Below, piece after piece: positions 5,673 to 64,000 of a stretch of DNA of 64,000 nt. The DNA lies in contig JAIPJX010000007.1 in the NCBI GenBank assembly GCA_021733945.1, positions 1 through 64,000 on the forward strand, read 5' to 3'. The notes below the pieces were generated by a model that was given only the letters and a program-made list of their open reading frames with translations, was not told the origin of the DNA and did no database searches. How positions within the stretch are numbered: the stretch's first letter is position 1; every line of letters begins with the position of its first letter. The position numbers and the translations under genes are program-made. Source of the DNA: Verrucomicrobiota bacterium. GTDB taxonomy: Bacteria; Verrucomicrobiota; Verrucomicrobiia; Limisphaerales; SIBE01.

Positions 5673-5682
5673 TGTAAAGATC

Positions 5683-6217: not shown

Positions 6218-6237
6218 ATCTTCTACTTAAATTGATG

Positions 6238-8205: not shown

Positions 8206-8208
8206 TCC

Positions 8209-11690: not shown

Positions 11691-11717
11691 AGGCACCGGT
11701 CCCAATCGAGCAACCGA

Positions 11718-12359: not shown

Positions 12360-12500
12360 ACAAGAAGCCCAGGGGATTCAGGGAGGGGGAACGCGACGCA
12401 GACAAACGCGGAGGTCCGCACTTGGGACAGAAAGCCGTTTTACATCCGCGTTGATCGGAAACCTGCGGTTGATGTTCCCCGGGGTCTGGTGCATTTGAGG

Positions 12501-13607: not shown

Positions 13608-13887
13608 AACACTCAGGCTCGTGGAGAGCCCCCATGCTGATCCTTGATCGCAGCCTCTTGACCGGAGGAACCGAATTCGCAGCTGAAAAGAACCGGTGCT
13701 GACTCCTCCTTTATTCCCGCGTCATCCTTCGCCGTTTCCGCCGACGGGCTGAAACTTTGTGCAATCCCTGGTGTTCGATTTTTCATGAAACGGCATTTCG
13801 ACCGAAACGAACCCGCTCGGGTCCTTGAGCATCGGATTCACGCCGGGATGCCAGTTGGCAGAACCATCTGGAAAGACTAAAACACTC
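13608..13887. other. Intergenic, no gene recognised
   Basis: About 280 bp with no recognisable gene, tRNA or clear hairpin terminator. It may carry the promoter of the thioredoxin-like gene at 13888. Confidence 0.45.
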
Positions 13888-14622
13888 ATGAATCATCAAA
13901 TCACACTTCGGCTCTTGTCGTCCCTCGCGCTTGTCACTATTGCCGCTTCCGCTCAACAACCAGTCCAGTTACCCGGAGCACCCGTCATACCCGTCGCGCC
14001 CCCGTCGCAAACGGCATCGGAGGAGGGCGCACCACCGCGTAAGGCAATACAGGCCACACTGATCAGAAGCCTGCCCCAAACCGCGTCGACCTCCTCCGTA
14101 ACCCAGCTCGAAGTCGGAGCCATCGCACCGGATTTCATCTCGAACGATCCGAAAGGAAACGCCGTGCACCTTTCCGATTTCAAGGGCAAGGTTCTTGTCC
14201 TCGGCTTCTGGGCAACGTGATGCGGCCCGTGTCTCGCGTCGCTTCCCCACACCGAAGAAACGTCAAAACGCTTCAGGGACTCGGACGTGGTGGTTCTGGC
14301 TGTTTGCACAGGGGACACTCGGGCGAAGTTCGAGCAGTGGATGAAGGCCAATCACGCCAGGTATCCCAACATCACCTTTACATCGGATCCAAATGAACGT
14401 GATTCGGCGAACTTCGACGAGCGCGCGTCGCGGAAGCTCTACGGAGTGAGCGGAATTCCAGCGCAATTCATCATTGATCGCGACGGCAAGATTGAGGCTG
14501 TTTTGAACGGCTATCTGAATGACGATGCGCGATTGGAAGCCGGACTCGCCAGAGCGGGCATCAAAGTCGATCCTGCACTCGTCGCCAAGGGCGAAGCACA
14601 ACTGAAATCCGGAGGATCTTAG
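13888..14622 (+). pseudogene. TlpA-like thioredoxin with in-frame UGA in the active site
   Basis: The protein starts MNHQITLRLLSSLALVTIAA, a Sec signal peptide, followed by a Pro-rich linker and the thioredoxin/AhpC-like opening VGAIAPDFISNDPKGNAVHL. It then reads KVLVLGFWAT-(UGA)-CGPCLASLP. The same frame continues beyond codon 111 (14218-14220) through VVVLAVCTGD, YPNITFTSDPNERDSANFDE and the cis-Pro motif VSGIPAQFIIDRDGKIEAVL to a normal stop at 14622. Family members have Trp here (WCGPC), so a single TGG-to-TGA change explains the break. Both Cys residues and the cis-Pro are intact. It is either a recent nonsense pseudogene, a sequence error, or a read-through gene. Neighbouring genes end in TGA, so general recoding is unlikely. 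Confidence 0.75.
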
Positions 14623-34000: not shown

Positions 34001-36282
34001 ACCCCGGTTTCCGGATCCACGGCGGCTCCCGCCGGCGCTCCGGAATGGAGACTGAACCTCAGTCCATTGGCAGGAAAATCCGGATCGGTCGCGGACAAAC
34101 GCACCGTGAGCGTGTCGCCGTTCCTCACAGTCTGATCCACGAGGGCCCCCAACACCGGCGGAGTGTTCGCCTCTCCCACCACGATTTCAAATGTCTGGGA
34201 GGCGATCAAACCGCCGGCTCCGGAATCCTGAACACTCACCGTGACGGAGTAGGTTCCAGGCCCCTGCTGTTCGCCCGGGGTCCAAAGAAACTGCCCCGTG
34301 CCCGAATCGATGGTCGCTCCGGAAGGCGCTCCAGGTCCAAGACGGAAGGCAAGTTGATTGACTGGAACATCATGATCCACAGCCTCAGCCACCAGACTGA
34401 GAGACTGCCCTTCCAGCACGGATCGCCGCCCCACCGGTGCGAGCACGGGCGGCTGATTCACCTCCGCAACCGAGATGCTGAAATCAGCCGTCGCCGTCAA
34501 GGGGGCGGGACCTCCATCCGAAACGATGACACGAACCGGATGAATGCCAGGCCCCTGGGATTCATCCGGAACCCACTGAAACTCGCCCGTGACCGGATCA
34601 ATGGAGGCGCCGGCCGGCGCGTTCGGCCCAAGACTGAAGGTAAGGCCGGTGCTCGGCAGATCCGGGTCGGCGGCCGCGATTCGGAAGGACACAGGCACGT
34701 TCTCACTGGCTGTCACATTGCCAACCGGCACCAGGACGGGCGCCTGGTTCGCTTCGAGCACATTGACCGTGAAGGTTCGGGCGGCATTAAAACCACCCGG
34801 ATCGGTCGCCCTCACTGTGATGGTGTAAACTCCAGGTCCCTGCGATTCGTCGGGCCTCCATACAAACACCCCCGACTGCCGATCAATCGAAGCCCCGGGA
34901 GGCGCACCCTCGATGGAGTAATCCAGCACATCACCATCGACATCGGTCGTCCTTGCCGCAAATCTCAACTCCGAGCCTTCCGCAAGGACCACGTTGCCAA
35001 GCGGCTCCATGACCGGCTGATCGTTCACGGGCACCACGTCCGCCAGAAAGCTCCTTACGGCGGTGTTGCCCGCCCGATCAGTCACCGTGATCGCAACTGT
35101 GGATTGCCCGTTTGCCTGGGCAACCGGCGAAATCAACATCGATCGTTCCGCGCCGGAACCGGTCAGGGTCAGCCGATCAGCCGGAATCAACTCCAGATTC
35201 GAACCTCGAATCTGGACCTCCAGCACGGGCGCATCCGTTTGGTTGTCACCGATCACAAAGGGCACGGGAAGGAATTCCGTATCTTCTGCCACCCGCTGAT
35301 CGGGAATCAAGCTGACGGTGGGTGCGCTGGCATCCACCGTGATGGGCAGTATGGGCGAAAAATGACTCTCGTTTCCGTTCGCATCCCTGGCTTTGGCGGC
35401 GATGCCGTGCAACCCGTTCGTCAGCGGAGTCGAAACCGTAACCGTCCACTGCCCCGCTGCGTCGGCCGTGGTGGACCCAATGACGGTTTCTCCATCGTAA
35501 ATCACAATCGGCAGATTCGGCTTGGACGTTCCGGAGAATGTCGGGGAGGATACATTCGTCAGATCATCCGTGTCCGAAACGCCTGAATCAGCAGCCGACA
35601 CCAGGTCCGGCACGCTCGGAGGAGGCACGACCGTGATCACGAGACGAGTGCCTTCCGTGGTCCAGGGCGCCGCAGCGGCATTGGCACCGCCGAAGAGCGT
35701 GCCGCCCAATCCTACAGCATCCCGAATCTTCAACTCCCAGACTCCGGTGGCCTGCTCCCCTTCGAACAGGACCATGCTATTGGTAGAGCTGGCATCATCC
35801 ACCTTGAAACTCCCCGTGTAAGGTGCCGATGCCTGTTCAACCGGAATCGGTGCCTCGGCGCTGAAACCCGTTTCCAAAAAACGGTTACCCCGGAGAAAAC
35901 CCTTGAGATCACCCAGCACACCGGAGGCAACCAATCGGACCGTGGTACCGGCCGGACTTCTCAACGTGATCTCCAAATCCTCAATCACCCCAAACCCGGC
36001 CGTCTGGAGGTTTAGGATCAGATCCACATCCTCAATGCCGATGGTACGATCGACGGTTCCGCTGAAGGTGGTCACACCAAACCCGAAGGGTCCCCCTTCA
36101 AAGTTAAACACCTGCGCCGAAACCCGCGCCGTCGAGACAACCCAGCCGCAGATCAGGATCGGCAGCAGGGACAAAAGGGGCACGCTCCACCCGCGTCGTG
36201 GACGCGGGGGATTCCCGCACCGGAGACGCGACAGGCAGTCACCTACAAACCGTGCAGCGTGATTCAGCACTGTTTCCTTCAT
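28042..36282 (-). CDS. Giant exported cadherin/He_PIG- and Ig-repeat protein (2,746 aa)
   Basis: An exported protein: basic N-terminus, hydrophobic segment [20 protein letters not shown] and cleavage near SAQ. The order is a proprotein-convertase P-like beta-sandwich ([20 protein letters not shown], residues ~55-230), an Ig-like module with [17 protein letters not shown], and about ten cadherin/He_PIG-type repeats ('N.APVL..V......G....F...A.D.D.P...L.....G.P.GA.IDP.TG...W.P'). About thirteen Ig-like repeats ('P..Q.V..G....F.V.A.G..PL.YQW..NG..I.GAT...L....V...DAG.Y.VVVSN') follow. Two PPC-like sandwiches ([19 protein letters not shown] and [20 protein letters not shown]) sit among the Ig repeats. 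The end is the FYR-type C-terminal domain shared with the protein at 9058. Its ATG overlaps the stop of the upstream giant gene (ATGA), predicting coupled translation. It is likely adhesive or structural at the surface; the ligand is unknown. Confidence 0.93.
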
Positions 36283-39200
36283 GTTCCCTGATCCAATTGA
36301 TTCACCATATGGGCGGCTCCAGCAGGTGCGGTTGCCTCCAGACTCAGCGCTGCAATCTCTAGCGCACCTGCCGTGCCAATGCCTTCGGAAGCCGTCAACA
36401 CCACCTGCGCCCCCACCAGCTCCGGACCAGCATCATCGGACAGTTCCTCAATGACACCCCCCGAAACAATGGTCAAAGCATTGCCCGTGGCCGTCACCAA
36501 TCCAACCGTTACATCCCCGCCGCCCGAGGTGCTCAAACGAACGTCTCCGACACCATGCGCCCTCACCAGTTCGACGGTCAGAGCCCCCTCCACGGACAAG
36601 TCAATCGAACCGTCCTGCGTGATGGCGTGTCGCACCAACAAATCCCCCTTGTTCGCAAGGATCAGGTCGCCCGCTGCAGCCTCCGCAGTCAGTTCGGAAA
36701 CTTCCGAAGAAATCGCCCCTCCCGCGACAAAGCCCACATCGGCCGACAGCGTCAGGCGATGTCCGGCAAAATTAACACCGGCCGATCCTTCGAGTTTCGA
36801 AATCGAACCGGTTGCATGCACGGTGATGTCACCGTCACGAGCCAGGATTTCAAGAACCGAAATATTGCCGCCATTTGAGGCGTTCAACAGAACCTCATGG
36901 CCGGCCCCGACCGCCCGCGCGGATTCCACCTCAAGCGAACCGTCCGCCGAAATCTCGACGGATCCATCCAACGCCACGGCTTCGTGGACCACCAGGCTCC
37001 CGGAATTCTGAATCCGGATGTCGCCGCGAAGGGTGGTGCCCGTAAACTCGGTCGCAGTCGTCCTGAGGGCCGTCCCTGTGCCAATTCCATCCTCGGCGGA
37101 TAAAACCAAAACGCCCGACACAAAATCAGCGGACGGCGGTGCCGCCATCAAAGCCCTCGCGGGAGCGAACTTCCGGACCCGGGTTGAGGTTCCAACCGCC
37201 GTCTGGGGTGTCACAGGAGCAACCCCCTCGATGGCTCCCGCGACCTTAATGGAAATGGTACCTTCAGAACCGACATCCAGAGTGCCCCCCAGGATCAACG
37301 ATCCGCCCGTTGACTCGAGACTCAGGTTCGAAGCCGTCATCCCGCCGCCAAGCGTCAGGTCTCCCCCCGCACTCACCGTGATATCAGCCCCGGGCGAAGC
37401 GCTGCTTCCGATCGTCAATGGCCCCTGATTGCTGATGGAAACATTGCTGCCGGGACCTGCGTTGAGCGAAATCTCATTCACATTGGTGGTGAGAGTGACG
37501 TTCCCCGAGGAACCGATGCTCAGCTGCCCGGCTGTCAACACACCCGGGATCGAAATGCCGCCAGCCGAGTTCAGCGAGAGGGCCGCATCACCCACATCGA
37601 TGCTCGAAAGACTCGTGATGTCCCCACCGGAAGTGAGGGCAAGATTCTGTCCGGGTTGAGTCTGCAGGTTCAGGATCACCAGCGAACCACTCACGGCGAG
37701 GTTCAAGTCGCCCGTTAATGTCGGAGCCGCGAGCACGTAATCGCCCTGAGCTTCGATGTTCAGTTCATCGCTCAGGGCTGTGGCCCCATCGGACAACCCA
37801 TCCACCGACACGATCTCCAGTTCGTCCGAGGCACCGGTCACATCGGGGCCGGTCACCAGAACCGGGTCCGGGATGGGCTGCCCGTGCTTCAGGTTGACCT
37901 TCCAGGCATCCACGTCCACGAGATCCTCGTTGTTGTCGACCGCACCCGCCGGTTCCCGAATGCTGCCGAACGCATCCAGTGTCACCTGACTGTGCGCCTT
38001 GGCCGCACCCGCCGATTCCCCGGCGATCACCTTGCCGACAAACAGATCCCCGACCGCTTCGAGCGTCACATCGTTGCCGACCGCATCCGTCGCTACACGG
38101 ACGTCCACCGCCGTCAAATCTCCACGAGCAGAGATGAACACGCTTCCGTTCTCTGCGTAAACTTCCTCAGCCACCAAACCGTCCGCTTCGCTCACTACGA
38201 TGTCGCCGCCAATCGTGGACCGGACCGACAACCGGTCCGTCCAGAGTCGAAGCGCGACGGAGGATCTTGCTTCAGCGATGGTGTGTTCAGCAATCAACAG
38301 CGGTCCATCGCCGGATTGAATCGAACCCGCCATCAACCGCGCTTCGCCCAGGGCCGCAAAGATTCCACTCGAGAGTTTCAGGGTTCCATTGGCTTGCAGG
38401 GCGATGGATCCTGTGGGATCAAAATCGTTCAGGCCACCCACAAAACCAGCGAGTAACAAATCCGTGGAAAGATTTGCTTCAACCCGGGTAGGTGCGCGCA
38501 ATTCGACATCTCCCGTCACGAAACGAGCCGATTCGATCATGATCACACCGGCATCCACAGTCCCGGCCGGCGCACTGCCCAGGGCGGTGATCCGAACCTC
38601 CGCGACCGGCGAAACAACGTCCCCGGTGATCCGAATGGAACCGTCCGAAACCAGATCAAGTCTCGTCGTCACCACAAACTCCGAGTTCAGCTCCATCAAC
38701 CCGCTGGATTCAAGGATGACGGTTTTCCCTGAAACGCGGCGTGGCAACTCGAAGCCAGCCGGGGCGCGCAAGGTTAAATACGAATCCACATGGATCACAT
38801 CGGCGGTATCGCTGCCGACTACCACCACGTTTCCTTCGAGACTCTCAAGATCCGCTCCTGCGCCCGCTCCGGTCGCGATCACGGATCGAACTTCCAACCG
38901 GTTCACACTCTGGATCGTCACCGAACCATTGGGAGCACTCACAAGAGTCAGGATCAGACCGTCGGCCGGGCTGTCGGCTGGATCGGATTCCCTTAACTCG
39001 ATGTCACCGGTTGCCGTGGAAGCATTCAGGGATCCCACGGAGACATCCAGGTCGTTGATGCCAGTCGCTGCGCGGAGCTCCAGTTCGCCGGCCACAATGC
39101 TCATTGCACCGTCGGGAGCCTTCGAAATCGCCGCTCCAGAATGAAGGATCACCGTCGGGGAACCGATCACCGGGGCCATGCCTGGATCATCAACCGGATC

Positions 39201-42200
39201 ATACCCGATCCGGATGGCCGCCCCGGCTGTCGCATTGACGGACGTCGTACCCTGCAGCGATCCGGCCAGTTCGATGCCCCCCGTGATTTCCAGAATCAAC
39301 TGATCCGCACTCAACCCGGAACCCGGCCCTTCCGTCACCGAATGAACGTTCAGCGTTTCCACCGTCAAGCTTCCGGCCACCATCTGCAGGACGTTTGCCG
39401 GTGCCTGCACCTCTCCGCGAACGATCACGTCGTCCGAAAGCAGGAGCGTGCGATCGCGGAAACTCGAATCCATACCCCGGCCTTCACCCGTCAGTCGAAT
39501 CTGGGATTCTGTGGTGGCATCACCGAGCACCATCAGGTTTCCGACGTCCGACCGACCGATCTGAACCAGCTCGAATCCATCGGCCAAAGCCGCCAGATCC
39601 CGGGTGGTCAGTTCCATGGCGCTTTCGAAGAATTCACGGGGCACATCATCGCCTGATGCGCTCTCAGCGGCCGTTCCCAAATAATAGTTCCAAACCGCGC
39701 CGCCGGCCTGAATCACCAACTTACCGGTACCGATCACCTGCCCGGCTCCCGACATCAAGTCAAGATCGTCCGCTGTCAGCGTGATGTCGCGACCAGGTGC
39801 CTGGACCACGATGTCGCCGCTGAGCAACGTCAACCTTGAGTCGGATTCGTTCAACAAAATCAACACGTCGCCCGCACCCGCCGCGACGGCGTGTACATCG
39901 TTTCCATCAGCCAGTTCGCCGAGCCAATCGCCGTTGAGCGCATCGTCCCATGGCACCTGCCCACGCCACACGGGGAGCAGTGTTTCATCCGGCAACAGGA
40001 TTCCGGCCATGCCGGGTTCCGAAAGGTCTCCCTGCACACCGAACGTCAGATCGGACTGACCTGTAATGACAATATCTCCCGAGCCTGAAGCAGAGGTCAC
40101 CGCCGAGACCATGTCGGCCCGGGCGATGATCGGGGCAACCCGTTCGCCGATGGAATTCCTGGCCTTGAGAATCAAATGTCCGGCTGCGACGAGGAGTTCG
40201 ACATCATTCTCGTTGTAGATCGAGCCGTCGGGAGCGATCAACCGGATCCAACCGCTGCCGGCACCATCCCAGGAATCGCCGGAGGACACGAGCAGATCCA
40301 CCTTCAAGTGTATATTGGCACCCTGCTCATAAGAACGCAGGTCCAGGTATCCGTCGTGCGCGGCGTTCAGCCGATGCACCAGATCGAGCGCCTTGAACGT
40401 GTCGAGAACGATGTGCCCGGCCTGAATCTCCCGGTCGTATATAAAATTCTGTGCCACGATGCGCAATCCCGTGGTCTGCAGGTTCAGAGGAACGTCTCCG
40501 ACGGAAGTCACCGTGACGTCCCCACCGAAGTCGACAATCCCCAAGGCCCCGAACTGACCCGCGTTGCCCACGATGGTCAACCGCTCGATCCCACTGTCGT
40601 ATTCAAGAATCTCGCGCCCGTTGCTGACCCGATGGGTCTCGAGGACCAGCGGATCCTGGGCTCGGGTTTGTTGCAGAACGATTTCGTCAAAGTCCCCGGC
40701 CGAATCCACAATCTTCAACCGACCCTCGCTCAACGCGGACGCAGGCCGTCCCTCTCTCACGAAATACGTATCGTTTCCGCCGGAATCCCGAATCTCGAGA
40801 ACACCCGGAGGATAATCGTCGATGTAAACAATATCGTCTCCGGTTCCGAGTGTCAGCAAACCACCCGTCGCCCCGCGCAGCCTGAATTCATCCCCGTTCG
40901 TATTGGTCACCGTGACGCCGCTGCCACGAATGGTGACTGTGAGAGGTGCCGTGACAGCGTTGAAACTCAGCTCCACGATCTCGCCCTGTTCGGTGACCCG
41001 GTTGTTTCCGTAATTGTCGGCAAAGAAGAAACTGTCATTGTTCGTACCGCCGGAAATGGTGTCATCTCCGGTTCCGCCATCCAGCAGATCATTACCGGCG
41101 CTGCCAAACAATCGGTCATCGCCAGCACCCCCGTCCAGGGTGTCATCGCCAGCGCCACCCTCCAGGGTGTCGTTGCCGTCACCGCCGCGAAGGATCCCGC
41201 CTGCGCTTCCCGCCATGAGGGAATCGTTCCCAGCCCCGCCGTCGAACTCTACGGTCACATCGTGCAGCCGGGACGCATCGAGCACATCGTTTCCGGCACC
41301 CCCGTTCATCACCACATGAGTAATGCCGTCATAACTCACATACCAGTCATCAAACTCAACATTCACCGTGCCGCCTGATCCGCTCAGGAGGAAGGTCTCG
41401 CTCCCGTCCTCGGTATTGAAATACAGCCGGTCAGCCGCCCTTGTGCCACTGTTGACGTAAAGGGTTGTTCCGTCGATCACCGCAAGAGACGGAGTCACGT
41501 CCGGAGCCAGATGCGAGAACGTCAGCAGGTTCACCCTGAGGAGATCAACGTCCAGCAACGTTCGTGTCTTCTTGAAGAACTTCATTTTCACAAACGCGCC
41601 GACGACCAGATCCAATTCCCCGAACAGATCGAACAGATTCGTGAACCCGCCGCTCTGGTAGTTCCAAAGCGTTGTCATTTCGGAAATCCGAATCTTTCCG
41701 TCAGCCTTGTAGGTCACATCCGTGACATTTCCTGAAGCATCTTTCGTCAGAACCGAGCGCCCGATGTCCTTTAGATCCAATCCAATCTTCAGTTCGACAC
41801 CACCACGCACTCCCGCGATGAACGGCCAGACCCGCAAACCAGCAGACAGCCCGATCGTCCCCTTCAACGTGAACTCGGGCTTCTCCTTGCCACCCGTTCC
41901 CTTCACAACCTTGCCGTTCTTGAACTCCGGCAGCGTGACGTCGGACACATAGAATCCATCCATGACGGCGGCGAAGCCCGCGCCGACACCCACGTTCGAA
42001 ACTCCGGCACTGATGAGCTTGCGTATCCCAAATGTGTCGTATCCGAATGCGAGATCCGCCGTTGCTTCGATCGAACCGAACGCATTGATGTTGATCGTGA
42101 ACGGCAGCGGTGCCAGCGGGATGCGCGCCAGGACAAGATCGAACTCCGCCTTAAACGAAAGCAGGGGCATTTCGTAGGTGAACAAAACCGCGTCCCCACC

Positions 42201-45200
42201 GCTGAAAATCTGCATCCAGTTGTTGATATCAAGCAGATATTCGACGAAACGGAAGCCCGATCGAGCCGTGGCGCTGCCGCCCGCGCTGCCGGAACTTTCC
42301 GCGCCCATGGATTCCGCTTCAAGAAGCTTGGAGAACTCCGCAAAATCTTCCGGAAGCGCATCGGTAATGTCATCCAAAAGCTCAAGTCCGGCGCTGTCCG
42401 CAACGAGCGTTCCCGAACCGAAGCCCCCGATATCGCCCAGAAGCACGTCCCCGTTCACACCCAGCATGGAATTCACCCGGTCCACCAGACTCAACATCTG
42501 CTCCGCCGCCTGAATGAACGACCAATTGATCGGCTTCAAACCCTTGAGCTTGAAGAGAACGTCGATCAAGCCCATCAGATTGGCCGGAGCCACCTTGAAT
42601 TTCGCGAGCCCGGGGATCTCCTTGGTCAACGCCGTGATAATCGGCCGGAACGGCTCAAGCACTCCTTCAATCCTCTCGGCAATCGGCTTGAGGAAGTCTG
42701 AAACGACACTTCCGATCTCAACCCGCAGATTCTGGATCTGAATCACCGGCTTGCTCGAACCCGTTCGGATGTCCCATCCCCAGTCCACGACCAGATCGCC
42801 CTTCAGTTTCGGAAGGCCCTTGACGGCGGCATCCACCTCCAGGGTCATTGCAAGGTTCAATTCCGCCTGAACACCGAAGTCGACCTGGAATGTGTCAGCC
42901 AGACTCGTCGACAGGATCTGCGTGGCGGTCAGACGGTTCTTCGAGTTCCCCTGATAGTTGAGGCTCAGCAAACCAAACAATCCACTGGGCTGGAAACCCA
43001 GCTCCGTCGGCGATCGATCCGTATCTTCAATCGTCGCCTTGAAGAACAAGAGTTTTCCTACGCCCTGGAACTGCGTGGTCAGATCCGGGTCCCCCGCCTC
43101 CCCGTCGAGGAAAACCGAAGCGTTCAGTTGGAGCTCGGGCGCCGCACCATCCGCATTGGTCACCAAATAAACCCCATCCGTCACGCTCAATCCAAACCCG
43201 AAATCAAAGCTCCAGCTCAGTTCGATTGCAAAACCTCCGTCGACTTTCAGGCCAAATCCGGGCACATCAATATCAAGGGGAATATCCACCCCGCCTCCAT
43301 AGAGGATTCCGCCCAGTTTCATGTCAAACTGGATGGCATCGGCGCCCTCAGGCACCTCGTCGCCCACCTGAAAATCAGCGATCTTCTGACCAGTCACATC
43401 CAACCACTCGATGCGGACGTCCGCGAAGGAAACAAATCCGTCGTGGTTTGAATCCAGCAGAATATTCAACCCATCCGGCCCCAGCAGGTTGTAGAGGGAG
43501 TCCTGAATGTATTCGATCGCCTTGCCGTTGCCGCTCAGTTTCTCCCGCAGGTCCGCGAGGAAACCCTGCCGGAACTCACGAATCATCGTCGCGGCATTCG
43601 CAAGCTTCGATCCGATCAGCGGGATGTCTTGTCCCAGGCTGCTTTCGAAAACATCCTGAATCGCTCCCAGGGTGGCATCCACGCCGTCGAGGATGAAGCT
43701 CGGATCGGTGAGGATTCCGAAGAGCGTGAACTTGCCGCCCAAATCCTGGAACGTACCCGCGATGTCCGGGAACGTGAAAAGGATCGGGTTCTCGCTCCCC
43801 TTGTCCGGCGCGTTGGCAAGGTGCTTCAGCAGTTGGGCCAGGCCTTGATCTCCATAGACCGGATTGCTTCGGATGGAGAGCGGATCGCCCAGCTTGAGTT
43901 CGGAGCTCACCACGGTGATGCTGAGCGGTAACTCAACAGCAAAGCCTCCGATCAGCTTCACTTCGATGTTCGACATCAGGTTCTCCTCGCCGATGTAGAA
44001 CCGCCCATCGTCAGTGACGCTTCCACTCTTCTGATCGATGGCAACCGTCAGCATCGCATAATCGTCCGTTGTGATGTCACCATCGCCATCAAGCACAACA
44101 GTCCCGCCGCTCACGCCCATTCGTATCGGCCCGGCGTGGAACCCAAGGGACAGGTCTTCCCCGAGCAACCGACCGCCCAGGGCAATCCGGGTGCCGAATC
44201 CGGTTCCCGGATCAAAGTCGTATAGGAAGAACCTGGGCGAACCGCCGTCTCCGGTCGCGCTCGCGTCGACGCCAATATCGAGGGACGCTTCGGCGAATGC
44301 TTCCAACAGGATCTCACCCGCGACCCCGGCCCCGCTGCTGTCCGCCAGTGTGTCGATTCCGTTCAGCTCCGAGGATCCCGATTGACCGGACATCTCTTTG
44401 AAGCTTCCCAGGTCGAGGGCGAAACCGTACGCCGCCGAGAACAGAGCATCCAGGCCGATATGAATGTCCAGGATTCCGTCCGCAATGGTCAGCGAGAACT
44501 TCTGATCGCCCGCGGACAATGAATTGTCGTCAACGATCCCAAGCGCGTTCTCAATCGCAATCTCCGCACTTCGCAACGTCCCCTCCGGATCCGCAACGGC
44601 CTGATCGAGCTTCGCCGCCAGCTGATCCACAAACGCGAAGACCTCGGCGAGTGACCGGTTGATGACCGGCAACCGTTGCGTGTAGAACGGCTGATCCGCC
44701 AGCAGGTCATTGAGGAATCCGAGTCCGATGCGAACACCGGCCACAATCTGCTCAAAGCCCAGATTCTGGAAGGCAAATGCCGTGCCGAAGTCGGGCAGAA
44801 CCACCACCACATCGTTCGGCCCGACCGTCCCGTCCGAAACAGCCTGCTCGAGATCAAACGGCACCGAGGGATCCTGTGTCACTACGGTGACCTGACTGAA
44901 GTCGGTGAGATCCTGGACGTGGATGCCGATCTCGGCCGTGGACGCGATTGGCACACTGCTGCCGCCTCCCGAGCTCACCGCAATCCCGCGCATTCCGGCA
45001 AATGCAGTACCCGCAAGCCGGAATTGCAGAGCACTGAAGAATTCTCCATTGGTCAGGTCGCGGAAGCCGAACAACTGATCGCCCGGAGTTTCCTGGGTCG
45101 GATCCCGATCAAGCGTCAACTCAGCCGTGGCGGAGACGGAAACACCCGACCCGCTACCCGCCCCGCCGGCGGTGATTCCCAACATCCCGAGTTGTGCCGC

Positions 45201-54200: not shown

Positions 54201-57200
54201 CGCCGTCAATGTGCCCCCGGCAGTTGCCGCAACGGTTCCATCCGCCGCACTCACAGCGGTCAGTTCCACAGAATCGGTTTCCTGCACGAACACCTCGCCC
54301 TCGCCCGTCAGATGCGCCTGAAGCGTGTTCACATTGGTGCTGAGTTGAATCCTCCCCGACGCCGTGGCCGTCACGGAGTCCGCAGTCAGAAAGCCGGTGT
54401 ATCCCAGGACAACTCTTCCGGAATTCTGAGCGGTCAAGTTCACGCCGCCCCCTGGAGCGGTGAGCGTCATGCTCCCCAGCTCGATCGAACCTCCCGCAAG
54501 AATGTCGATCGAGTGACCGGTCTGGGTCGTCAGGCTTCCACCCACATACATGATCGCTGCGTCGCTGCGGATCGCAATATCCCCGCCCGCTTCTACAATG
54601 AGTCGATCCGCATCAATCCGTGTATTCGAAGAAGCAGCATAGGTAAACGCCCCCGACGAACGAAGGGTCGCCCGGGGTGTCGTTTCGCCATCCAGCATTC
54701 CGCCGATCAGGAACTTTCCGGCAACCGGGATGTTGCCCGTATAATCCACAGCAACGTCGGAGCGCAGCTGCGTCTCACCCACTCCGCTCAAGTCGGCCTC
54801 CAGCGCCAACGCCTCTCCGCTTGCGAGCACCAACAGAGCCGTCGCAAAAGTCGGCTGCACCGGACCGGTCGGCAGGTTGAGGGTGCCCCCGGCGCGATAT
54901 TCCGTCCGATCGGTTCCCCTCACGATGAAAAGCGTCGTGATATCCAGCGCCGCGGACAGAACCACATTTCGGAGAGTGTACCCTTCGGAAGCGGACACTG
55001 CCGGGCCGGCTTCGGACGCAACCAGCACGATGGAACCGAGATCACTCAGCAACGTCACATCGCGACCGGCCACAACGTGCTGCACATTCAGGGAGTTGAG
55101 CGCCTGAACAAACACATCCCCCAGGGGCGCCTGCACATCGGTCAGGGTCAGACCGTTCACCGCCTCGTTAAATCCGTCTGCGTGCGACAACGTCACACTT
55201 CCCGTCCCGCTACCCGCGGAAATCGAGTTCGCCGATATTCGTAATCCGGAAACATTACCCTGCGCGTGGAGCGAGACCGCATCGCCAATCACGTGCGGTG
55301 GTCCATCCGTAGAATCCACCGCAGTGATGTTTCCGCCTGCAACCAGGGTGACATTGCCGCCCGCTCTCAACGGTCCAACATCCTGGTTCACCGTGAGCCA
55401 TTGCTGCACCGGAGTCGCCGCGGCATAGGTGGCATCCCCGGTCTGAATCGCCTCGATGACAATCGTGCCCGGACCGCTGATCGTCAGCAGATCCCCTGTG
55501 ACGGACGCCGGACCCGCCAGGACACGGTACGACGCGGAAAGACCGGAACTCGCACTCGCAGCCAGAGTCAAGGTGAGCGAGGTGTGGCTGAAGGTCAGAG
55601 CATCCAAAGGAGCAAAGGTCACCGTCTGCCCCAATGTTCCCGTTCCGACGTTCTTTCGGATGATGGATCGCAACGCATCCGAATCGTCAACGGCCGTTTC
55701 CTCATTCGCCAACAACACCGGCGGTTCCCCCTCCTTCGGCCCGATCGACTGGGTGGTGGTGCCTGCGGTGGTTTCCAATTTCAAAATGGTACCACGCCCC
55801 CCCAATGCCCAGAGGTGGTTGGCATCAGCTCCCCAAATATCCCGCAAATCCTCCAGGGTGCCAGGGCTGAAGGAGCTCCACGTGCCGCCCTGCCTCTTCT
55901 GGATGGTGCCATTGCTTCCAACGGCCCAGACCGTGTCCGCATCGCTGGTCCAAATTCTGTAGAGGGTCTGGGTGGTGTTGGATGTTTCAATCACCCATTC
56001 CGTGCCGTTCCAATTGAAGATTCTTCCAGAGCTCCCGGACACCCATACATCATTTGCGTTCCGACCCCAGACGGAATAGAGCGTAAAGTTGCTTCCCGGA
56101 TCCTGAGTCTCCCAGACCGTGCCGTTCCATTTCAGAATGGTGCCACCGCTTCCCACCGCCCAGACATTGCTGCTGTCGACTCCCCACACCCCCGAAAGAC
56201 TGACGGTGGAACCGGAATCCTGCGAACTCCATGTCGTGCCGTTCCATTTGATGATCGTTCCATTGGCACCGACCGCCCAGACATTCTGCGCATCGCTTCC
56301 CCAGACACCCGAGAGCGTCGGTTTAAATGAGGACGTGCCCACCGGACTCAGGCCGGATTCCTGCGCGATCCATGAAGTGCCATCCCATTTACGAATCGTT
56401 CCGTCGACACCCACTCCCCAGATATTATTGGCATCGATTCCCCAGATGCTGTTGAGGGATTGTCCGGAACCACTCGATTCCGTCTCCCAGCTCGTTCCGT
56501 TCCATTTTACAACGGTGCTGCCGCTTCCGGTCGCCCAAATGTTGTTGGCATCAAGTCCCCAGACGGACGAAAGCGTATCGCTGAAATTGGACGCCACCCG
56601 CGTATTCCAGCCCGAACCATCCCAGGCGAGAATCACACCACCGTTCCCGACCGCCAAGACGTTGCCCGAATCCTTCGCGTAAATTCCATACAAACTGGAG
56701 CTTGTGCCGGATGTTTCGGCGGACCACGCGGACCCGTCCCATTTACGAATCGTGCCAGAGGATCCCGAAACCCACACGGCCTGCTCGCTCAGGCCGGTGA
56801 TCGCGTAAAAACTGGCGGTGGTTCCCGAACTCTGAGTTACCCACGTCGAGCCGTTCCATTTCACAATGGTTCCGCCATTCCCGACCGCCCACACGTTGTT
56901 CGCGTCCGTTCCCCAAATCCCATACAACGTCTGTGTCGTCCCGGAACTCTGAGTCACCCATGCGGTGCCATCCCATTGCGCGATCCCTCCGCTGGTTCCA
57001 ACGACCCAGACATGATTGGAATCACTGCCCCAGACTCCCAACGACGTTTGATTGCCTCCCGTGTCCTGAACTCTCCAGGCCTGACCATCCCACTTCGTGA
57101 CCCTCCCGCTCGAGCCAGCAGCCCAGATGTTGTTTACGTCGGTCCCCCAGATTCCCCTCAGCGTGTCGCTGGTGCCGGAACCTTGTTCGACCCATGCCGT

Positions 57201-60200
57201 ACCGTTCCATCGCAGGATCGTTCCGAAGCTCCCCACCGCCCAGACATTGTCGGCGTCCGTTCCCCAGACCGCATACAGGGTTCTGTCCGCCGTTGGTTCC
57301 TGGCGCAGCCACGTCGCCCCCCCGTCGCCCGTGTGCCAGAGATAACCCGTGTCCCCAACCGCCCATCCGTTCACGGCATCAACCATGGCAACGGACTGAA
57401 GGGTGGTTCCATTCTGATAAACCTCCCATTCGCTGGCCGATGTGATTTCAAACGTTGCCGATCTGGCCCCCGAGTACTCCGTATCGTTGATCGTGGCGAT
57501 CACCGTGTATTTGCCGACTTCCGTGGGACTGGTCTGGGAACCGTTGTAAGTCACGCTCACGGCGAAGCCCGCCGGCACGCTGGCAACCGCCACCTCCCGA
57601 GCACCACCGGTGTATTCCTGCCGAAGACCGCCAAAGTTGATCGTCGGATTGATCGTGAAAGTCCGATCCACCGGTTCGGCAGCCAAATACTCGTCGTTCC
57701 CGTCCTGGGTGGCGCGCACGACCACCGTTCCGAGATCGGTCGTGTAGATCGTTCGGCCATCAATCAATGCGGGTCCGCTGACAACGGAATAAGTCACGGC
57801 AAGTCCGGCACTCGAGGTCGCAAACACAGAGAACGGAGTGCCGAAATTCCTCGCGCCGCTCGAAGTAAAGCCGATTGTCTGCGTCAACTTGTCCTGAATT
57901 TCGATTTTGGTGCCTGATGTCGTCGTTGTATAACCATCGGTCGCCGCGACCCTCAGGGTTCGCGTCGCGGTGAAGGCGGCTCCGGCAATCGGAGCCGAAC
58001 CATCCGTCGGCGGATTGGCCTGGCTGGGCAACTGCCAGGCGACAGCCAACACATCCCCGCCTGTATTTTGTTTGTGCAGCACTTCCACGTAATAGGTCTC
58101 TCCGGCTGTCAGCGTGATCGTTCGCGGAGTGGGCCATTCGCTTCCCGCAAACTGATCGGATCGTTTGGCGCTAAGGCTGCTGTCCCCTGTTGAACTCAGC
58201 CATTCCCGGGTCCGGGACCAGACGGTCTCCCTGGCAATGAGTTTCTTGTTCGCCGGATTCTCGTCGTAGCTCAGGTAGAGTTCCGTTGCGTCGTCGCCGC
58301 TGACGAAGAACACATACTCACCCGTTTCAGGAGCCGTGATGTAGCCTGAAATTCTTTGTCCATAGTTGTCGCCGTAGGCACTGGGAGCTTCAAAGTCCGA
58401 CAGTAGTTCCACGACATCCGGGCTGGACGGAAATTTCCCACTGCTCAGGAGTTCGGCTGTCGTGTCTCCGGAAATACCGGTGTAGACCTCGCGCAGCAGA
58501 TGTCCCTCGGTCAATGGCGATGCGGTGTAGGTGATCCGGCCTGCCGTCGTGAAGTAGGTGTTCAACGCGCTCACCGATCCCGTGAATGTCCGCGCCGTGG
58601 GGGTTCCGCCAATCGTGATGCCCTCCGCATCCTGTCCGGAAATCGTTCCATCCCCGATGGACAACGTCACGGTCAATGTGGCCGAATCCGGATCGGAAAA
58701 AGGCGTACCCGCAAATTGCAGATCACTTGTCCTGTTCGACATCACCGTGAAACCCGCCGGAACGGAAACGACAGGCGGCAGCTGCGGAGGTTTGACCAGA
58801 ATCGTGCTTTCCGCGCTCGACGTGGAATTTCCATCGGACGCAACCAGCGTCAGAAGTTGCGGCCCCGGTCCGGTTGCTCCGGACAGATAGGTAATGTTCC
58901 CGGCCGTCGTGAAATAAGTGTTCAGATCCGCGATCGTTCCGGTGAACGTCCGCTCAAGTGCCGTTCCACTGACCGTGACCGTTCCCGTGGAGGCTGCGGA
59001 GATGGTTCCCTCGGCGACCGACACCTTCACCGTCAAACGGGCGGAATCCACATCGGCAAACGGAACCCCCAGGAATTGAAGATCGCCGACGGAACCATCA
59101 AACACGGTGAAACTGTTGGTCGCGGACACGACGGGTTGGAGATTGATGTCGCCCGGGCCCGATGCATACCGCCCGCCCTGGATCCGGCTGACCTGAATAT
59201 TGCCACCCGCCTCCAACCGAATGTCGCCTCCATCGCCGGCATCAGCCGTAATGATCAGGGCACCGGCTTCCTGCAGGATGTCGCCGATTACCGCGGTCAC
59301 GCTCACCACACCACTGCTGCCCGCCTCACCCGCGACGGGGGATACGTCGGTTGAGATCGTGGCTCCGGTTTTTTGGAGAACGCTCCGCGCCGCGCTCAAC
59401 TGGATGTTGCCCATGTTCGACCGCGCCCCTGCGAACATCACCAGATCAGACCCGGTTCCCTGCGCATCGAGGGTCACGATCCCGGCTCCGCTGGCGGACA
59501 CCGCCGCAGGATTCCCAAAGGATCCGTTCGACTCGAGAGTGATGGAACCATTGATGGTTTGAAGCAGGATCGCTCCGCCATTGGTCGTCACCAAATCGCT
59601 CTGCATCCCGTCGATCAATTCCCGGGTCACTGCGGTTTCCATAACACGCCGCACACGGATGGCGTCGGTCAGACCGACTGACACAGAATCCTGTTCGATG
59701 AGTCTGATGTCCGACCCCGCGTGCGCGGACACCCGCTGAACCGAGGTCTCCAGGGGGTTTTCAGCGCCGATTCCCAGCGGAGCCCAAAGGCGAACCGAAC
59801 CACCCGCGATATCCACATGCGCGTCACCGGCATCCGCGATCCGGCCCGTGCCCGAGATCGCGCTGAGCGCGCCAGAACCAGCGTCCACATGGGTCAGGGT
59901 CAAATCTCCATTCGCCCAGAACCGAACGTTTCCGGATCCGCCGACGTTGATCACACCCGCACCGACCGCCATGGACACCGAACCCGTCGTCGCCTCAACA
60001 TCGAGGTTCCCTGCTCCGGACGCCAGCACCACCGCGGTTGAACCGATCGAAACGTTTCGTGGCGAGAGAATCGAAACGTCGCCGGTTCCGGATTGTACGT
60101 TCGCGCCCAGAAACACATCGGAATTCGCCCCCTGAGCCTGCAGCAGTATGTTTCCGGAACCATTCGCCAGCACACCCACGCCGGCAGTGGATTCTCCTGG

Positions 60201-63200
60201 AGGCGCAACCGTAATCGTCCCGCTCGTGGTTCGAAGCACGATGGATCCGTTGAAACCCGTCACCAACCCGTTTCGGCGATCAAGGATCGGCGCGTTCGAA
60301 GTTCCCTCCGTGGCCCGGATCACACTCACCGCAACATCACCCACCTCAAGGTGATCATTCTCCAAAAGACTCAGGCCTCCGGCCCCACCAAATCCCGCCA
60401 GGACGGAAACGGCAATACGAAGTGGATTGAACTGATTCCCCAACGCACCAACGGCATTGGAAGCCGCCACAAACAAACCATCGGAGGTGACGTGGAACAT
60501 CGCATCGCCACCGGGAAGAATGTTTCCGACGTTGGACCGGATTCCCACATTGCCAAGTCCGGCATCGATGCGGACCACGCGAAGATCTGTTTGTGATTCG
60601 ATGCGGACATCCCCACCCAGCGAGCTTCCACTCGAAATCGAGGTCCCGTCGGTCTGGGTAATGCCGCCACTCCAGGAGGTAAGGTCAATGCTTCCGCCCG
60701 CAGTTTCCACATTCGCATTCACCAAAATCGAACCCGTGGCCTGCACCGAGATAAATCCCGTTCCTGCATTTGTGATGTCCCCCGCCAGAACGAGGTCACC
60801 CAGATTGATCAGCGCGATCCCGCCCCGGGTGCCGCTGGCTTCCAACTGCTCAACCGCCACTTCGATTGGGCTGTTGGCCAGCCCGATTCCACCGCCCGCA
60901 GTGCCGGAATGCACCGCCTCGAGAACCAGCGCCCTGGACCGGATCCTTGCCCCCTCGCCTCCCGGAACACCCAGGATCGAACCCGCCTCGGCAACCAGCG
61001 ACACGGATCCATTCGGAGCGTCAATCAAAACAATCCGGAGGTCACCGGAACGCTCGATCAGATGGAGATTCTGGCCAACGCTGGCAGTCAGAGTTCCATC
61101 GAGGAGATTGTTCGTGACGATCGGCATCTCAACCGATCCAACGGATCCCCTGCCCGCATTCAGCGTGATGCCATACCCCACCACGTTGGCGCTCCCGGGA
61201 ACAGAGGTGCCCAGAATTCCGTTGCCGCTTTCCAGAAGGACCGGCACCTGACCCAGAACGGATTTTAAAACCATGTCTTCACCCGACCTCAGCGTGATGT
61301 TGCCGAGCGCGGACAAACCGAGCACCTTCCCGACTTCCATCCGTCCGCCCGCATTCAGTTCAATCACGCCAGCGCTGGCCTGCACATTGGCATCCGCGTT
61401 CGTCGCGGTCAGGATCATGTCCCCGCCTGAAGCCAACCGCACGTCGCCCTCCGAACTGCTGACGGAATCCACATTCATCTGCCCGCCGGCGGTCAAGGTG
61501 ACGCCCCCCGAAGACGCGAAGATCGAGACGGCGGTCAACACCCCGTCGGCAAATCCAGAAATCGCCCCTTTGTCGGACACCACCCTTGTCGCGCCAAGAT
61601 TGCCGGCCGCTCGCAACAGAATGGCGCCATCCACAGCATGGACATCCGTCGCTGTGAGATCCCCCCGCGACTTGAGGAAAACCACCCCCAGATCGTTGGT
61701 CACGCTCAGAAAGTTGACGTCCCCCAGAGCCCCAACAATCACGTCCCCCGCCGCTGCGATCTCAACGCCGCCCGAAACCTTCACATTCACGTCGTCCTTC
61801 ACCTGGACGACGAGTTTTTCGATCGCGAACTTGTTGGTGACGAATTGGCCGTTCCGGATGGAAACCGTTCCGTCGGTGGTCCCCCAATCCGCCTCAACCC
61901 CGGCCGCAAACTCGGGAACGATCCGTTGCCAGACACGGCCGTTTCGGAACTGTTCCGGCCGAGCCAGATCGATCAAAGCATCATCGCCTTTGTAGAGGTA
62001 CAGTTCATACTCCACGGAAAGCACGTCATCACCACTGGCGCGGGATAACAGTTCTTTTTGATCCAATGGCAGGAGGCCGAAGACTTCCGGATGCGACACC
62101 GCAACGGCTTCAGAGGCGTATCCGATGGTTCCGTTGCCTCCGGGCAGCAACAGTACATCCACCGCCGTGATGTTCGAGAATTCCGCATTGCCGGAAGCGC
62201 CGTTCAGCAAGGTCGAATGCGGCAGCACGGCTTTCGCGAGGGACGATGAAACGGCGTACTTGGCCTGATCCGGAGAGAGTCCGGCCTTGGATAATTTCGC
62301 CTGCAGCAGCGCTCCGATTCCCGATTGACCGCTCGCCCGGAATTCCTCATACACCCCGTCGAGGATCGATCCCGACACCGTACGAAGTGTTACCTTGCCG
62401 TTCTCGGATTCGACGGAAGCCGTTGCGCCTTCCCAGAAGTCCGGACGAACCAACAGCAGATCGCCATCGGTTTCGATGAGATGGATGTCACCCTTCGCCA
62501 ACGCGGCGATCCCTCCGGCCTTCGCAGCACCGGAGTCAACGCGCGCGTTGATGGAACCTTCCAGGGATTGAAGTTCAATCCGGTTGCCACGAATGATCGA
62601 GTCTTCGCCCACAAAGCTGATTCCGTGCTTGGCGGTGATCATCACGTCGCCCCCGGTCGTGACGATTTGGCCGATCTCGATGAAGTTCGTCGCGTTGTCC
62701 TTCGACACGGCGGTCAGCGTGATGTTGCCTGTCGCCGACACAAAGGTCGGCCCCTTGCCCCCCTCGATGTTCATCGTGACCGATCCCAGGCCGATCACCT
62801 GCTCGACATGCCCGAAAACCGCAGCCGTAGGGCTGCTTGAGATCGTGCCGCCTGAACTAAAAGACATGCTCCGCGCGGAAGCCGGTTCTTCCACGGTGCC
62901 GGTGAGAACCAGATCTCCAGGTGTGGTGATGTCGAGACCGGGATTGTTCTGCTTCAGGAATTGAATACGAACCGGGTAATCGGCCTTCAGCACGTGGGTG
63001 TAATAGTCTTTGACGCCCTGCACCGTGGTCGTGATCGTGCGATAGGTCTTCTGCTTGAGGAATCCGCCACCCTCGGTTTCATTGACGAGCGTGATCGTCG
63101 TGTTCGCGTAGTCGCTGTCGTACTTCTTCAAGTCCACATCTTCGAACGTCGCAAAGCGCGAAACATTCTCGACCAATTCCCAGGAACCTGCATCGCTGTA

Positions 63201-64000
63201 ATCCTGGTCGCCGAGATTGATGTCCGCACTTTCGCCGATATAGCGATACACCGGATTTAATCCCGCCAAACTCGAATCGAAGACATTCCGAACCTGACTC
63301 ACGTTCTGGACAACGTCGACCGTCTCGTCGTTGTAACGAATATACTGCACGCCGTAAACGGCACCCGGCACCCAGGCGGGCAGTCCGTCGTTTGCAGCCG
63401 CCGGGAGTTCGGAATCCAAAAGCGGCGTGTTGTCTGTGAACGCAAAATCCGTCGAGATCTTGTTCTCGTCCTTGACCAATGCGTCGGCCTCGAAGAACCC
63501 GAAATCGAAGGCCTTGTTCTCATACACCTCCACCGTCGTTTGAGTGGCTTCCTGGCCTTCGGTCCAAAGGTAGTACCTGCCCTGCGCGGGTGTGTAGTAG
63601 AATTCGTCCGAAATCTGGTGGGTCTGGGTGGCCCCGTCCGTGTAGGTGATCTTCCCGCCTTCCAAAACACCCTGCGAACGCTGCTCAGTGATGGTTTCGT
63701 CTTTGATTGAATAAACAATCTTTTGCAGCGTGACGGAGTCCGTGATGCTGATCTGACCTGACTGACCGCTGTCGAGATCCATGACACCCAGAACCAACGC
63801 AAAAGGACTTTCGTTGTTGATCTCCACATGCGGATTACCGTCGGCAACGACCAGCTTTCCATTGCCTGTGCTCAGCATTTGTCCGGTCAGCGTGATCCGC
63901 CCCGCCTGAGCCACAAAATCGTCGATCACAATCTGCCCGTTCACCGCATCGAAGTATCCGGAGAGCGTCTGACCGTCATTGGCGACATCCAGTCCGCTCT
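36279..64000 (-). CDS. Giant mosaic surface/secreted protein, 5' end outside the window
   Basis: Open without a stop from the window edge to the TGA at 36279: at least 9,239 codons. The N-terminus lies outside the window. Reading from the N-terminal side: a domain with [20 protein letters not shown], long filamentous-haemagglutinin-like beta-helix stretches ('..GDI.L.A.GDL....'), two cadherin-like TSDLQF repeats, a PA14 domain (~58500-57985), an MBG-type Ig domain (~57660-57440), 14 propeller repeats (~57410-55770) and more beta-helix. Next come an autotransporter-like [13 protein letters not shown]...GDVFDIL segment, eight ~183-residue repeats (~50900-46900), an alpha/beta section with threefold internal similarity (~46800-42480), RTX repeats (~41330-41010) and a final ~1,580-residue beta-helix. 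No membrane translocator or sorting motif is seen at the C-terminus. It is probably a matrix or contact protein. Confidence 0.95.
41010..41330 (-). repeat. RTX calcium-binding nonapeptides inside the giant protein
   Basis: At least eight GGxGxDxLx-type units: [62 protein letters not shown] and GGTNNDSFF. Such repeats form a calcium-dependent beta-roll. They lie about 1,580 residues before the C-terminus, not at the end as in classical type I-secreted toxins. Confidence 0.93.
42480..46800 (-). other. Alpha/beta section of the giant protein with ~370-residue periodicity
   Basis: Unlike its beta-helical flanks, this part alternates strands with amphipathic helices. A pattern of 'PDF/PDI ... (L/I)P(V/L)I..(T/S/K)L' followed by a helix with F/L heptads occurs three times. 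The examples are [19 protein letters not shown] (~45830), [20 protein letters not shown] (~44660) and [19 protein letters not shown] (~43600). [14 protein letters not shown] calcium-loop motif lies near 43430. No domain name is offered. Confidence 0.6.
46900..50900 (-). repeat. Eight ~183-residue repeats, five with calcium-loop motifs
   Basis: Each repeat holds a strand-rich start ending 'F(F/V)..(G/N)GS.GFEKS', then 'L.(I/V)G.(T/S).L.AF.GINGPY', a D-x-[DN]-x-[DN]G-type loop, 'G(L/M)SL..VEFGLAL..PK.GQ', and 'LRW.(A/S)L.A......GIP......N..V.IN'. The FEKS landmark falls near 50335, 49785, 49235, 48685 and 48135 (550-bp period). Diverged copies lie near 50830, 47590 and 47195. The loops read [48 protein letters not shown] and [12 protein letters not shown]. 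Confidence 0.9.
55770..57410 (-). repeat. Fourteen ~39-residue propeller repeats in the giant protein
   Basis: Consensus 'TL.(G/S)(V/I)[24 protein letters not shown]' repeated 14 times, including the first divergent copy ([20 protein letters not shown]) and the last ([20 protein letters not shown]). Repeats of this type form blades; 14 blades would fit two consecutive seven-bladed propellers. Confidence 0.9.
57985..58500 (-). other. PA14 domain of the giant protein
   Basis: Starts [19 protein letters not shown] and includes [20 protein letters not shown] with [14 protein letters not shown], then [20 protein letters not shown]. This is the characteristic PA14 beta-barrel pattern ('G.I..P..G.Y.F...SDD...L'). 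PA14 domains usually bind carbohydrate, often with calcium held by the DD pair. It is followed by an MBG-type domain ([17 protein letters not shown]). Confidence 0.88.

What the first reader, a model, noticed from the sequence alone, without database searches (positions are those of the whole stretch)
36279..64000. A single gene of more than 27.7 kb encoding a mosaic surface protein
The frame is uninterrupted for at least 9,239 codons and still open at the window edge, ranking it among very large bacterial genes. At least seven architectures follow one another: beta-helix, PA14, MBG, propellers, calcium-loop repeats, an alpha/beta section and RTX. The absence of frameshifts in so long a repeat-rich gene, while neighbouring accessory genes are decaying, implies strong selection.
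Basis: partly seen in the sequence, partly recalled or inferred. Interest (0 to 1): 0.85.

Follow-up and report, generated by a model that had tools for sequence, protein, structure and literature searches.

The report
Giant LEPR-XLL surface protein, 14,542 residues
The gene is real and even longer than reported (a complete 43.6-kb gene for a 1.48-megadalton, cysteine-free, probably surface-exposed protein); it belongs to a little-studied cross-phylum family of giants whose N-terminal LEPR motif goes hand in hand, in other genomes, with what looks like an undescribed export machine built around a SecA-like motor.

Summary
Observation confirmed and extended. The frame runs past the window to an ATG at contig position 79907: 14,542 aa, 1.48 MDa, pI 4.3, no cysteine, no internal stop. 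PA14, MBG, RTX and LktA-type repeats are supported by curated profiles; 39-residue Trp repeats, 183-residue calcium-loop repeats and a conserved alpha/beta section by sequence. It is a new member of a known kind: NCBIfam LEPR-XLL giants (NF012209 + NF012206), found as 12-20 kaa frames in proteobacterial isolates and in Planctomycetota and Verrucomicrobiota. Its conserved section groups with the cross-phylum giants, not with its own order's ~6-kaa relatives.

The unexpected part lies outside the window. Across 196 genomes of its order, LEPR co-occurs with one operon: TolC-like protein, two adaptors, M50-protease/adaptor fusion, SecA-like ATPase, no ABC transporter (32 both, 7+7 single, 150 neither; Fisher p=3e-23). 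At 22 LEPR loci it lies 2-6 kb away. Conversely, on complete plasmids six of six giants beside the operon (one lacking the SecA-like gene) begin with (L/F/M/I)EPRxLLxAD. I propose LEPR-XLL is this exporter's leader. Weak point: the operon is absent from this genome's 90%-complete assembly, though a same-genus genome carries part of it.

The parts
36279..64000 (-). Giant LEPR-XLL gene, the part inside the window (aa ~5304-14,542). The gene continues on contig C92 to its ATG at 79907 (14,542 aa in all).
59208..64000 (-). beta-helix-like stretch A, window part (aa ~5304-6900); the LktA_tand_53 repeats (aa ~500-4300) and the LEPR motif (aa 9-27, contig ~79827-79883) lie beyond the window
58518..59150 (-). 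two cadherin-like repeats (aa ~6920-7130, 53-55% identical to each other)
   Evidence: self-match; fold name is inference
58014..58382 (-). PA14 domain (aa 7176-7297)
   Evidence: PF07691, 35-40 bits, cut-off 24
57432..57644 (-). MBG_3 domain (aa 7422-7492)
   Evidence: PF18887, 70 bits, cut-off 25
55728..57410 (-). Trp-rich repeats, mostly 39 aa apart (aa ~7500-8060), probable beta-propeller
   Evidence: propeller fold inferred
51348..55370 (-). beta-helix-like stretch B (aa 8180-9520)
51048..51344 (-). second copy (aa 9522-9620) of the strand module at aa ~228-327 (YDQL.V.G...)
46758..50810 (-). 183-aa repeats with calcium-type loops at aa 9900, 10083, 10267, 10450, 10633
41298..46760 (-). 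conserved alpha/beta section (aa 11,050-12,870), the family's most conserved part found; last 829 aa modelled with pTM 0.70 and no PDB match
40878..41300 (-). RTX calcium-binding nonapeptide repeats (aa 12,870-13,010), internal
   Evidence: PF00353, 39 bits, cut-off 23; GG.G.D motifs
36282..40880 (-). beta-helix-like stretch C, ending in mid-repeat without the non-repetitive tail of relatives
28042..36282 (-). downstream gene, 2,746 aa: Sec-type signal peptide by eye, P-domain, He_PIG, 11 Ig_3 domains; its ATG overlaps the giant's TGA (ATGA 36279-36282), so probably co-transcribed

Best explanation
It is a giant, extracellular, calcium-binding filamentous adhesin (or surface coat/stalk) of the LEPR-XLL family in an uncultured verrucomicrobial bacterium. 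Proposed mechanism: the LEPR-XLL leader (here EALEPRLLLSAD) is recognised by a dedicated exporter made of a SecA-like ATPase without the SecA scaffold/wing domain, an M50 protease fused to a HlyD-type adaptor, two further adaptors and a TolC-like outer-membrane channel. The SecA-like motor (instead of an ABC transporter) threads the unfolded, cysteine-free chain through one conduit, the M50 site cuts the leader, and calcium folds the RTX, calcium-loop and beta-helix segments outside, giving a long fibre whose PA14, MBG and Trp-repeat domains bind surfaces or glycans. SHOWN here: the complete gene, its composition and domains, its family, the tree position, and the statistical and physical link between LEPR proteins and the operon in other genomes. 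INFERRED: surface location, adhesion, that the operon exports LEPR proteins, leader cleavage, and that this genome has the operon in an unassembled part.
For: Complete 14,542-aa frame, 0 Cys, pI 4.28. LEPR-8K and LktA_tand_53 above cut-offs. Homologous section in Planctomycetota, Pseudomonadota, Cyanobacteriota and others, in frames up to 12-20 kaa; loci of the cross-phylum clade have 0-3 Cys in their longest open segment (one exception with 8), against 4-10 in nearly all loci of the verrucomicrobial type. Tree: giant in the cross-phylum clade (100*), own 4,392-aa paralogue in the verrucomicrobial clade. Operon beside LEPR genes (22 loci at 2.2-5.8 kb). Co-occurrence in the order: 32/7/7/150, p=3e-23; by family 17/4/3/38, p=7e-9. 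Reverse test from complete plasmids: 6 of 6 adjacent giants start with an EPRxLLxAD motif, four of them not annotated as LEPR. M50 site HExxH and NPLxRFDG, and SecA motifs GEGKT, DEAD, AGRGTDI conserved. No canonical HlyD over cut-off in G000, G001, G048, G018, all LEPR carriers. Same-genus G001 has the SecA-like gene (808 bits) with the end of the M50 fusion at a contig edge.
Against: The operon is not in the assembled 90% of this genome. Some LEPR carriers lack the operon and some operon carriers lack LEPR; Thalassospira lacks the SecA-like gene next to it. No structure or domain proves adhesion. The giant ends in mid-repeat without the C-terminal tail of relatives, so this copy may be shortened. 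Co-occurrence is not proof of transport.
Confidence: 0.6

Rival explanations
1. A classical RTX adhesin exported by an ordinary type I system (ABC transporter, HlyD, TolC) through a C-terminal signal; LEPR is only a conserved N-terminal anchor.
For: RTX repeats above cut-off; acidic, Cys-free; proteobacterial carriers also hold canonical HlyD genes.
Against: RTX lies about 1,530 aa before the C-terminus and the C-terminus is beta-helix-like; best HlyD in this genome 48 bits against a cut-off of 209, likewise nothing near the cut-off in G001, G048 or G018, and no hit in G140.
Confidence: 0.17
2. The operon and LEPR giants share genomes for another reason: the operon is a RiPP-type maturation and peptide export system, and LEPR proteins travel by Sec.
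For: The M50 half resembles daptide/epipeptide maturation proteases; NCBI calls it 'PqqD family peptide modification chaperone' on plasmids.
Against: In 22 loci plus the plasmids the neighbour is a LEPR protein, usually a giant; no radical-SAM or precursor gene was annotated beside it on the plasmids read; LEPR N-termini show no evident hydrophobic core.
Confidence: 0.13
3. The copy in this genome is a decaying or truncated giant with no functional export, kept open by chance or recent arrival.
For: Stop in mid-repeat, no C-terminal tail; exporter not found; the nearest homologue (G043) is split into two frames.
Against: Not one stop in 14,542 codons, uniform codon-position composition, pN/pS well below 1 in the conserved section and repeats.
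Confidence: 0.1

Closest known systems
NCBIfam LEPR-XLL giants (NF012209 LEPR-8K with NF012206 LktA_tand_53); a ~8,000-aa Vibrio member is mentioned in PMC10868602
   Same: N-terminal LEPR-XLL, LktA-type repeats, RTX, huge size
   Different: Nearly twice the length the family name suggests, no cysteine; conserved alpha/beta section described here; gene carried by a verrucomicrobium
Giant ORFs of Omnitrophota (39,678 aa; PMC10066038) and huge proteins of the PVC superphylum (PMC11573180)
   Same: Very large single genes in PVC bacteria, some with predicted adhesive extracellular domains
   Different: The Omnitrophota giant has 42 predicted TM helices; homology between the two was not tested here
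Type I secretion (HlyB/HlyD/TolC) with RTX adhesins
   Same: TolC-like channel and HlyD-type adaptors beside the substrate gene in relatives; RTX repeats
   Different: SecA-like ATPase and M50-adaptor fusion take the place of the ABC transporter; N-terminal leader instead of C-terminal signal (proposed)
Accessory Sec systems (SecA2) that export serine-rich repeat adhesins
   Same: A second SecA apparently devoted to very large surface proteins
   Different: Below SecA2 cut-offs, no scaffold/wing domain hit, and linked to TolC and adaptors

Membership tests
NCBIfam NF012209 LEPR-8K (LEPR-XLL) | N-terminal LEPR-XLL segment over the curated cut-off (17 bits) | tested here: met
   27.7 bits at aa 9-27; 33.9 bits in the genome search
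NCBIfam NF012206 LktA_tand_53 | tandem 53-residue repeats over cut-off (50 bits) | tested here: met
   371.8 bits, 19 stretches
RTX protein of a type I secretion system | RTX nonapeptide repeats | tested here: met
   PF00353 39.1 bits, cut-off 23
RTX protein of a type I secretion system | RTX block close to a C-terminal secretion signal | tested here: not met
   RTX ends ~1,530 aa before the C-terminus, followed by beta-helix-like repeats
RTX protein of a type I secretion system | cognate HlyD-type adaptor in the genome | tested here: not met
   best TIGR01843 48 bits, cut-off 208.65, in a 90%-complete assembly
Two-partner secretion / FHA exoprotein | N-terminal TPS haemagglutination domain | tested here: not met
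   no such Pfam or NCBIfam hit in aa 1-5000
Autotransporter | C-terminal beta-barrel | tested here: not met
   no such hit in aa 9543-14542
T9SS, PEP-CTERM or LPXTG surface protein | C-terminal sorting signal | tested here: not met
   no hit in the C-terminal 5000 aa
LEPR-linked SecA-like / M50-adaptor / TolC operon (this report) | operon present in the same genome | tested here: inconclusive
   not found in the 90%-complete assembly; contig ends 461 bp upstream of the giant; same-genus G001 has part of it
LEPR-linked SecA-like / M50-adaptor / TolC operon (this report) | operon and LEPR co-occur across genomes | tested here: met
   32/7/7/150 over 196 genomes, p=3e-23
LEPR-linked SecA-like / M50-adaptor / TolC operon (this report) | operon needed for export of LEPR proteins | not testable with these tools
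   needs deletion and localisation experiments
SecA2 accessory Sec motor | score above SecA/SecA2 cut-offs and SecA scaffold/wing domain | tested here: not met
   relatives' SecA-like 442-627 bits against 800 (TIGR00963) and 388-512 against 930 (TIGR03714); no scaffold/wing domain among the Pfam hits

The most novel reading that the evidence does not exclude
LEPR-XLL is the leader of a secretion system not described in the library or profile collections searched here: an ABC-less, TolC-type conduit driven by a SecA-like ATPase, with an M50-protease/adaptor fusion that processes the leader, dedicated to cysteine-poor proteins up to about 20,000 residues and spread across Verrucomicrobiota, Pseudomonadota and, in a divergent form, Planctomycetota. 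The window's gene is one of its substrates.
Probability: 0.55. Interest if true: 0.88.

Novelty: new variant of a known kind. Interest (0 to 1): 0.72.

Why it matters
How bacteria move proteins of over a megadalton across two membranes without a known transporter is open. LEPR-XLL has been a label of unknown purpose on giants; linking it to one operon gives it a testable function and gives the giants of many environmental bacteria a candidate export route. The conserved alpha/beta section (829 aa, fairly confident model, no PDB match) is a good target for a possible new fold.

Tried and rejected
Canonical type I export: no HlyD over cut-off in this genome. TPS, autotransporter and C-terminal sorting signals: no hits. 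Candidate exporter at G000:C55 (665-aa frame): only 35-36 bits to the operon models, probably a generic efflux system. Structure of the first alpha/beta half: pTM 0.39, unusable, and its Foldseek list is noise. Second half: pTM 0.70, but TM-scores to the PDB matches listed are all 0.16 or lower, so no fold assigned; the only sequence match in PDB is a weak one to an EF-hand protein. dN/dS of the giant against G043: dS saturated. Same-genus giant G001:C117: at least 7,500 aa and shares the N-terminus (37-41%), but its modules are shuffled, so no orthologue-level comparison was possible. Literature: LEPR-XLL in two papers only; several searches for a SecA/M50/TolC adhesin exporter found nothing relevant, in an open-access library that lacks most subscription papers. 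PqqD-like domain in the M50 fusion: only in NCBI product names; Pfam did not confirm it.
Full report
OBSERVATION. The window is bases 1-64000 of a contig of 80,368 bp in a 5.4-Mb, 225-contig, 90.4%-complete genome. The reported frame is open from its TGA at 36279-36281 through the window edge. Reading on it reaches an ATG at contig 79907 with TAG immediately before it. The protein is 14,542 aa, 1.483 MDa, pI 4.28, with no cysteine. GC at the three codon positions keeps one pattern along its whole length, so it is one coding frame.

ANATOMY (aa; aa i lies at contig 79907-3(i-1)). 9-27 LEPR-XLL (NF012209). About 228-327 strand module, repeated at 9522-9620. About 500-4300 LktA_tand_53 beta-helix repeats with super-repeats about 680-710 aa apart, carrying inserted 'Y..IG...QDYSD' units. 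4350-6900 further beta-helix-like sequence. 6920-7130 two cadherin-like repeats. 7176-7297 PA14 and 7422-7492 MBG_3. About 7500-8060 Trp-rich repeats mostly 39 aa apart. 8180-9520 beta-helix-like. 9700-11,050 183-aa repeats with calcium-type loops. 11,050-12,870 alpha/beta section. 12,870-13,010 RTX. 13,010-14,542 beta-helix-like, ending in mid-repeat; relatives carry a non-repetitive tail there. Fold names without a profile hit are inferences from sequence.

FAMILY. The alpha/beta section is the conserved heart: aa 12,042-12,870 aligns with homologues in Verrucomicrobiota, Planctomycetota, Pseudomonadota, Cyanobacteriota, Elusimicrobiota and others. Many lie in open frames of 12,000-20,000 aa, including cultured strains of Donghicola, Poseidonocella, Thioclava and Limnohabitans. 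Record titles of same-order relatives (Limisphaera sp. SKYG106, Pedosphaera sp. Baikal; matched through contig lengths) place the host in the Verrucomicrobiota, near Limisphaera/Pedosphaera. A tree of 89 rows splits into a mostly verrucomicrobial clade, many of whose members sit in frames of about 6,000 aa and which includes this genome's own 4,392-aa LEPR paralogue on contig C134, and a cross-phylum clade with the window's giant. The giant pairs there with a same-order copy (97*) and then a Desulfobacterales copy (99*). Inheritance of two ancient types or transfer between phyla both fit; the tree alone does not decide. The same-genus giant G001:C117 shares the N-terminus but has shuffled modules.

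SELECTION. dN/dS over 2,683-2,805 codons around the conserved section is 0.09 (Limnohabitans-type pairs), 0.08 (Poseidonocella/Thioclava) and 0.06 (two verrucomicrobial copies). For the window's gene itself only saturated or internal-repeat comparisons were possible.

EXPORT. The N-terminus is not an evident Sec signal peptide by eye: a basic stretch followed by LE(P/Q/E/D/S)RxL(L/M)S(A/G), 11-41 residues from the first Met. Around LEPR giants of proteobacteria I found the same neighbours repeatedly: a TolC-like protein, a short and a long HlyD-type adaptor, an M50-protease/adaptor fusion of about 720 aa, a SecA-like ATPase of about 690 aa, and often SapC and DUF3467. No ABC transporter is among the conserved neighbours. 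The same operon, in the order TolC - short adaptor - long adaptor - M50 fusion - SecA-like, occurs in Verrucomicrobiota. The SecA-like protein scores 750-1,060 bits in the main group, against about 310-460 for ordinary SecA frames of about 930-1,220 aa; Planctomycetota have a divergent form at 555-575 bits. It keeps Walker A and B and AGRGTDI but shows no scaffold/wing domain hit and no C-terminal zinc motif. The M50 half keeps HExxH and NPLxRFDG.

TESTS OF THE LINK. (a) 196 genomes of the order: both 32, LEPR only 7, M50 fusion only 7 (counting matches over 250 bits), neither 150; Fisher p=3e-23. Collapsed to families, 17/4/3/38, p=7e-9 (the family counts were tallied by hand from the listed tables, with 62 families as the total). 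(b) Distance: at 22 LEPR loci the M50 fusion lies 2.2-5.8 kb from the LEPR frame. (c) Reverse prediction in another data set: starting from the M50 fusion in complete plasmids, the adjacent giants of Pseudosulfitobacter, Methylosinus, Mesorhizobium, Pontibrevibacter and Alisedimentitalea all begin with an (L/F/M)EPRxLLxAD leader, four of them annotated only as Ig-like, LamG or calcium-binding proteins. Thalassospira (IEPRILLSAD) was reached through the conserved giant section and has no SecA-like gene beside it. (d) The three cyanobacterial carriers and Roseibacillus, which hold the giant's section but no LEPR hit, have no full M50 fusion (one partial 96-bit match in Cyanothece) and only an ordinary-type SecA. 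These are associations between genes, not proof of transport.

THIS GENOME. It has two LEPR proteins but neither the M50 fusion nor the SecA-like gene in the assembly. The contig ends 461 bp before the giant's start, on the side where the operon sits divergently in G104, G188 and G160. Same-genus G001 carries the SecA-like gene with the end of the M50 fusion at a contig edge, and family members G002 and G005 carry both genes. So presence here is likely but unproven.

STRUCTURE. The 829-aa section was modelled with 43 aligned sequences: pLDDT 81.5, pTM 0.70, long strands of 15-20 residues interleaved with helices. Foldseek against the PDB listed no match with a TM-score above about 0.16. The upstream half was not modelled reliably.

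NOVELTY. The giant itself is a new member of a known kind. Longer bacterial genes are known (39,678 aa in Omnitrophota, PMC10066038), and huge proteins are known to be enriched in PVC phyla (PMC11573180). The variant lies in the export route: no profile-library model for the SecA-like or M50-fusion proteins reached its cut-off, and no paper found in the held library describes such a system. That library lacks most subscription papers.

Noticed in passing
G000:C134:34792 onward (L151-L152): A second LEPR-XLL protein in the same genome, in a 4,392-aa frame, belonging to the verrucomicrobial family that is conserved across the order (many members ~6 kaa).
   Followed up: partly
window 28042-36282 (-): Ig/He_PIG/P-domain protein of 2,746 aa whose start overlaps the giant's stop (ATGA); possible partner of the giant.
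   Followed up: partly
window 36279-36420: The giant stops in mid-repeat; no beta-helix continuation is visible in the other frames downstream. Natural end or shortening by recombination is open.
   Followed up: partly
G133:C10 (126-kb contig, Poseidonocella sedimentorum): The M50 fusion gene is split over the two contig ends, suggesting a circular plasmid that carries the giant and its operon.
   Followed up: no
L199 (Citrobacter freundii IncHI1B/IncP plasmid), hits in E. coli plasmids: A weaker version of the operon without a SecA-like gene (TolC, adaptors, M50 fusion at 272 bits) sits beside a 4,465-aa Ig-like protein on an enterobacterial plasmid; its relation to the RSP-type Ig proteins of IncHI plasmids (PMC6764697, reported there as exported by the conjugative type IV system) was not examined.
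   Followed up: no
L174 (G043:C385): The closest homologue of the giant's conserved section (58-61% identity) is split into two overlapping frames in a MAG contig; frameshift or assembly error.
   Followed up: partly
L130, L142, L144, L148, L149, L197: SapC (PF07277) genes recur beside LEPR giants in proteobacteria; role unknown.
   Followed up: no
G103:C1:958944 (one-contig genome): A 20,890-aa LEPR frame and three more LEPR proteins in one genome of the same order, with one exporter operon.
   Followed up: no
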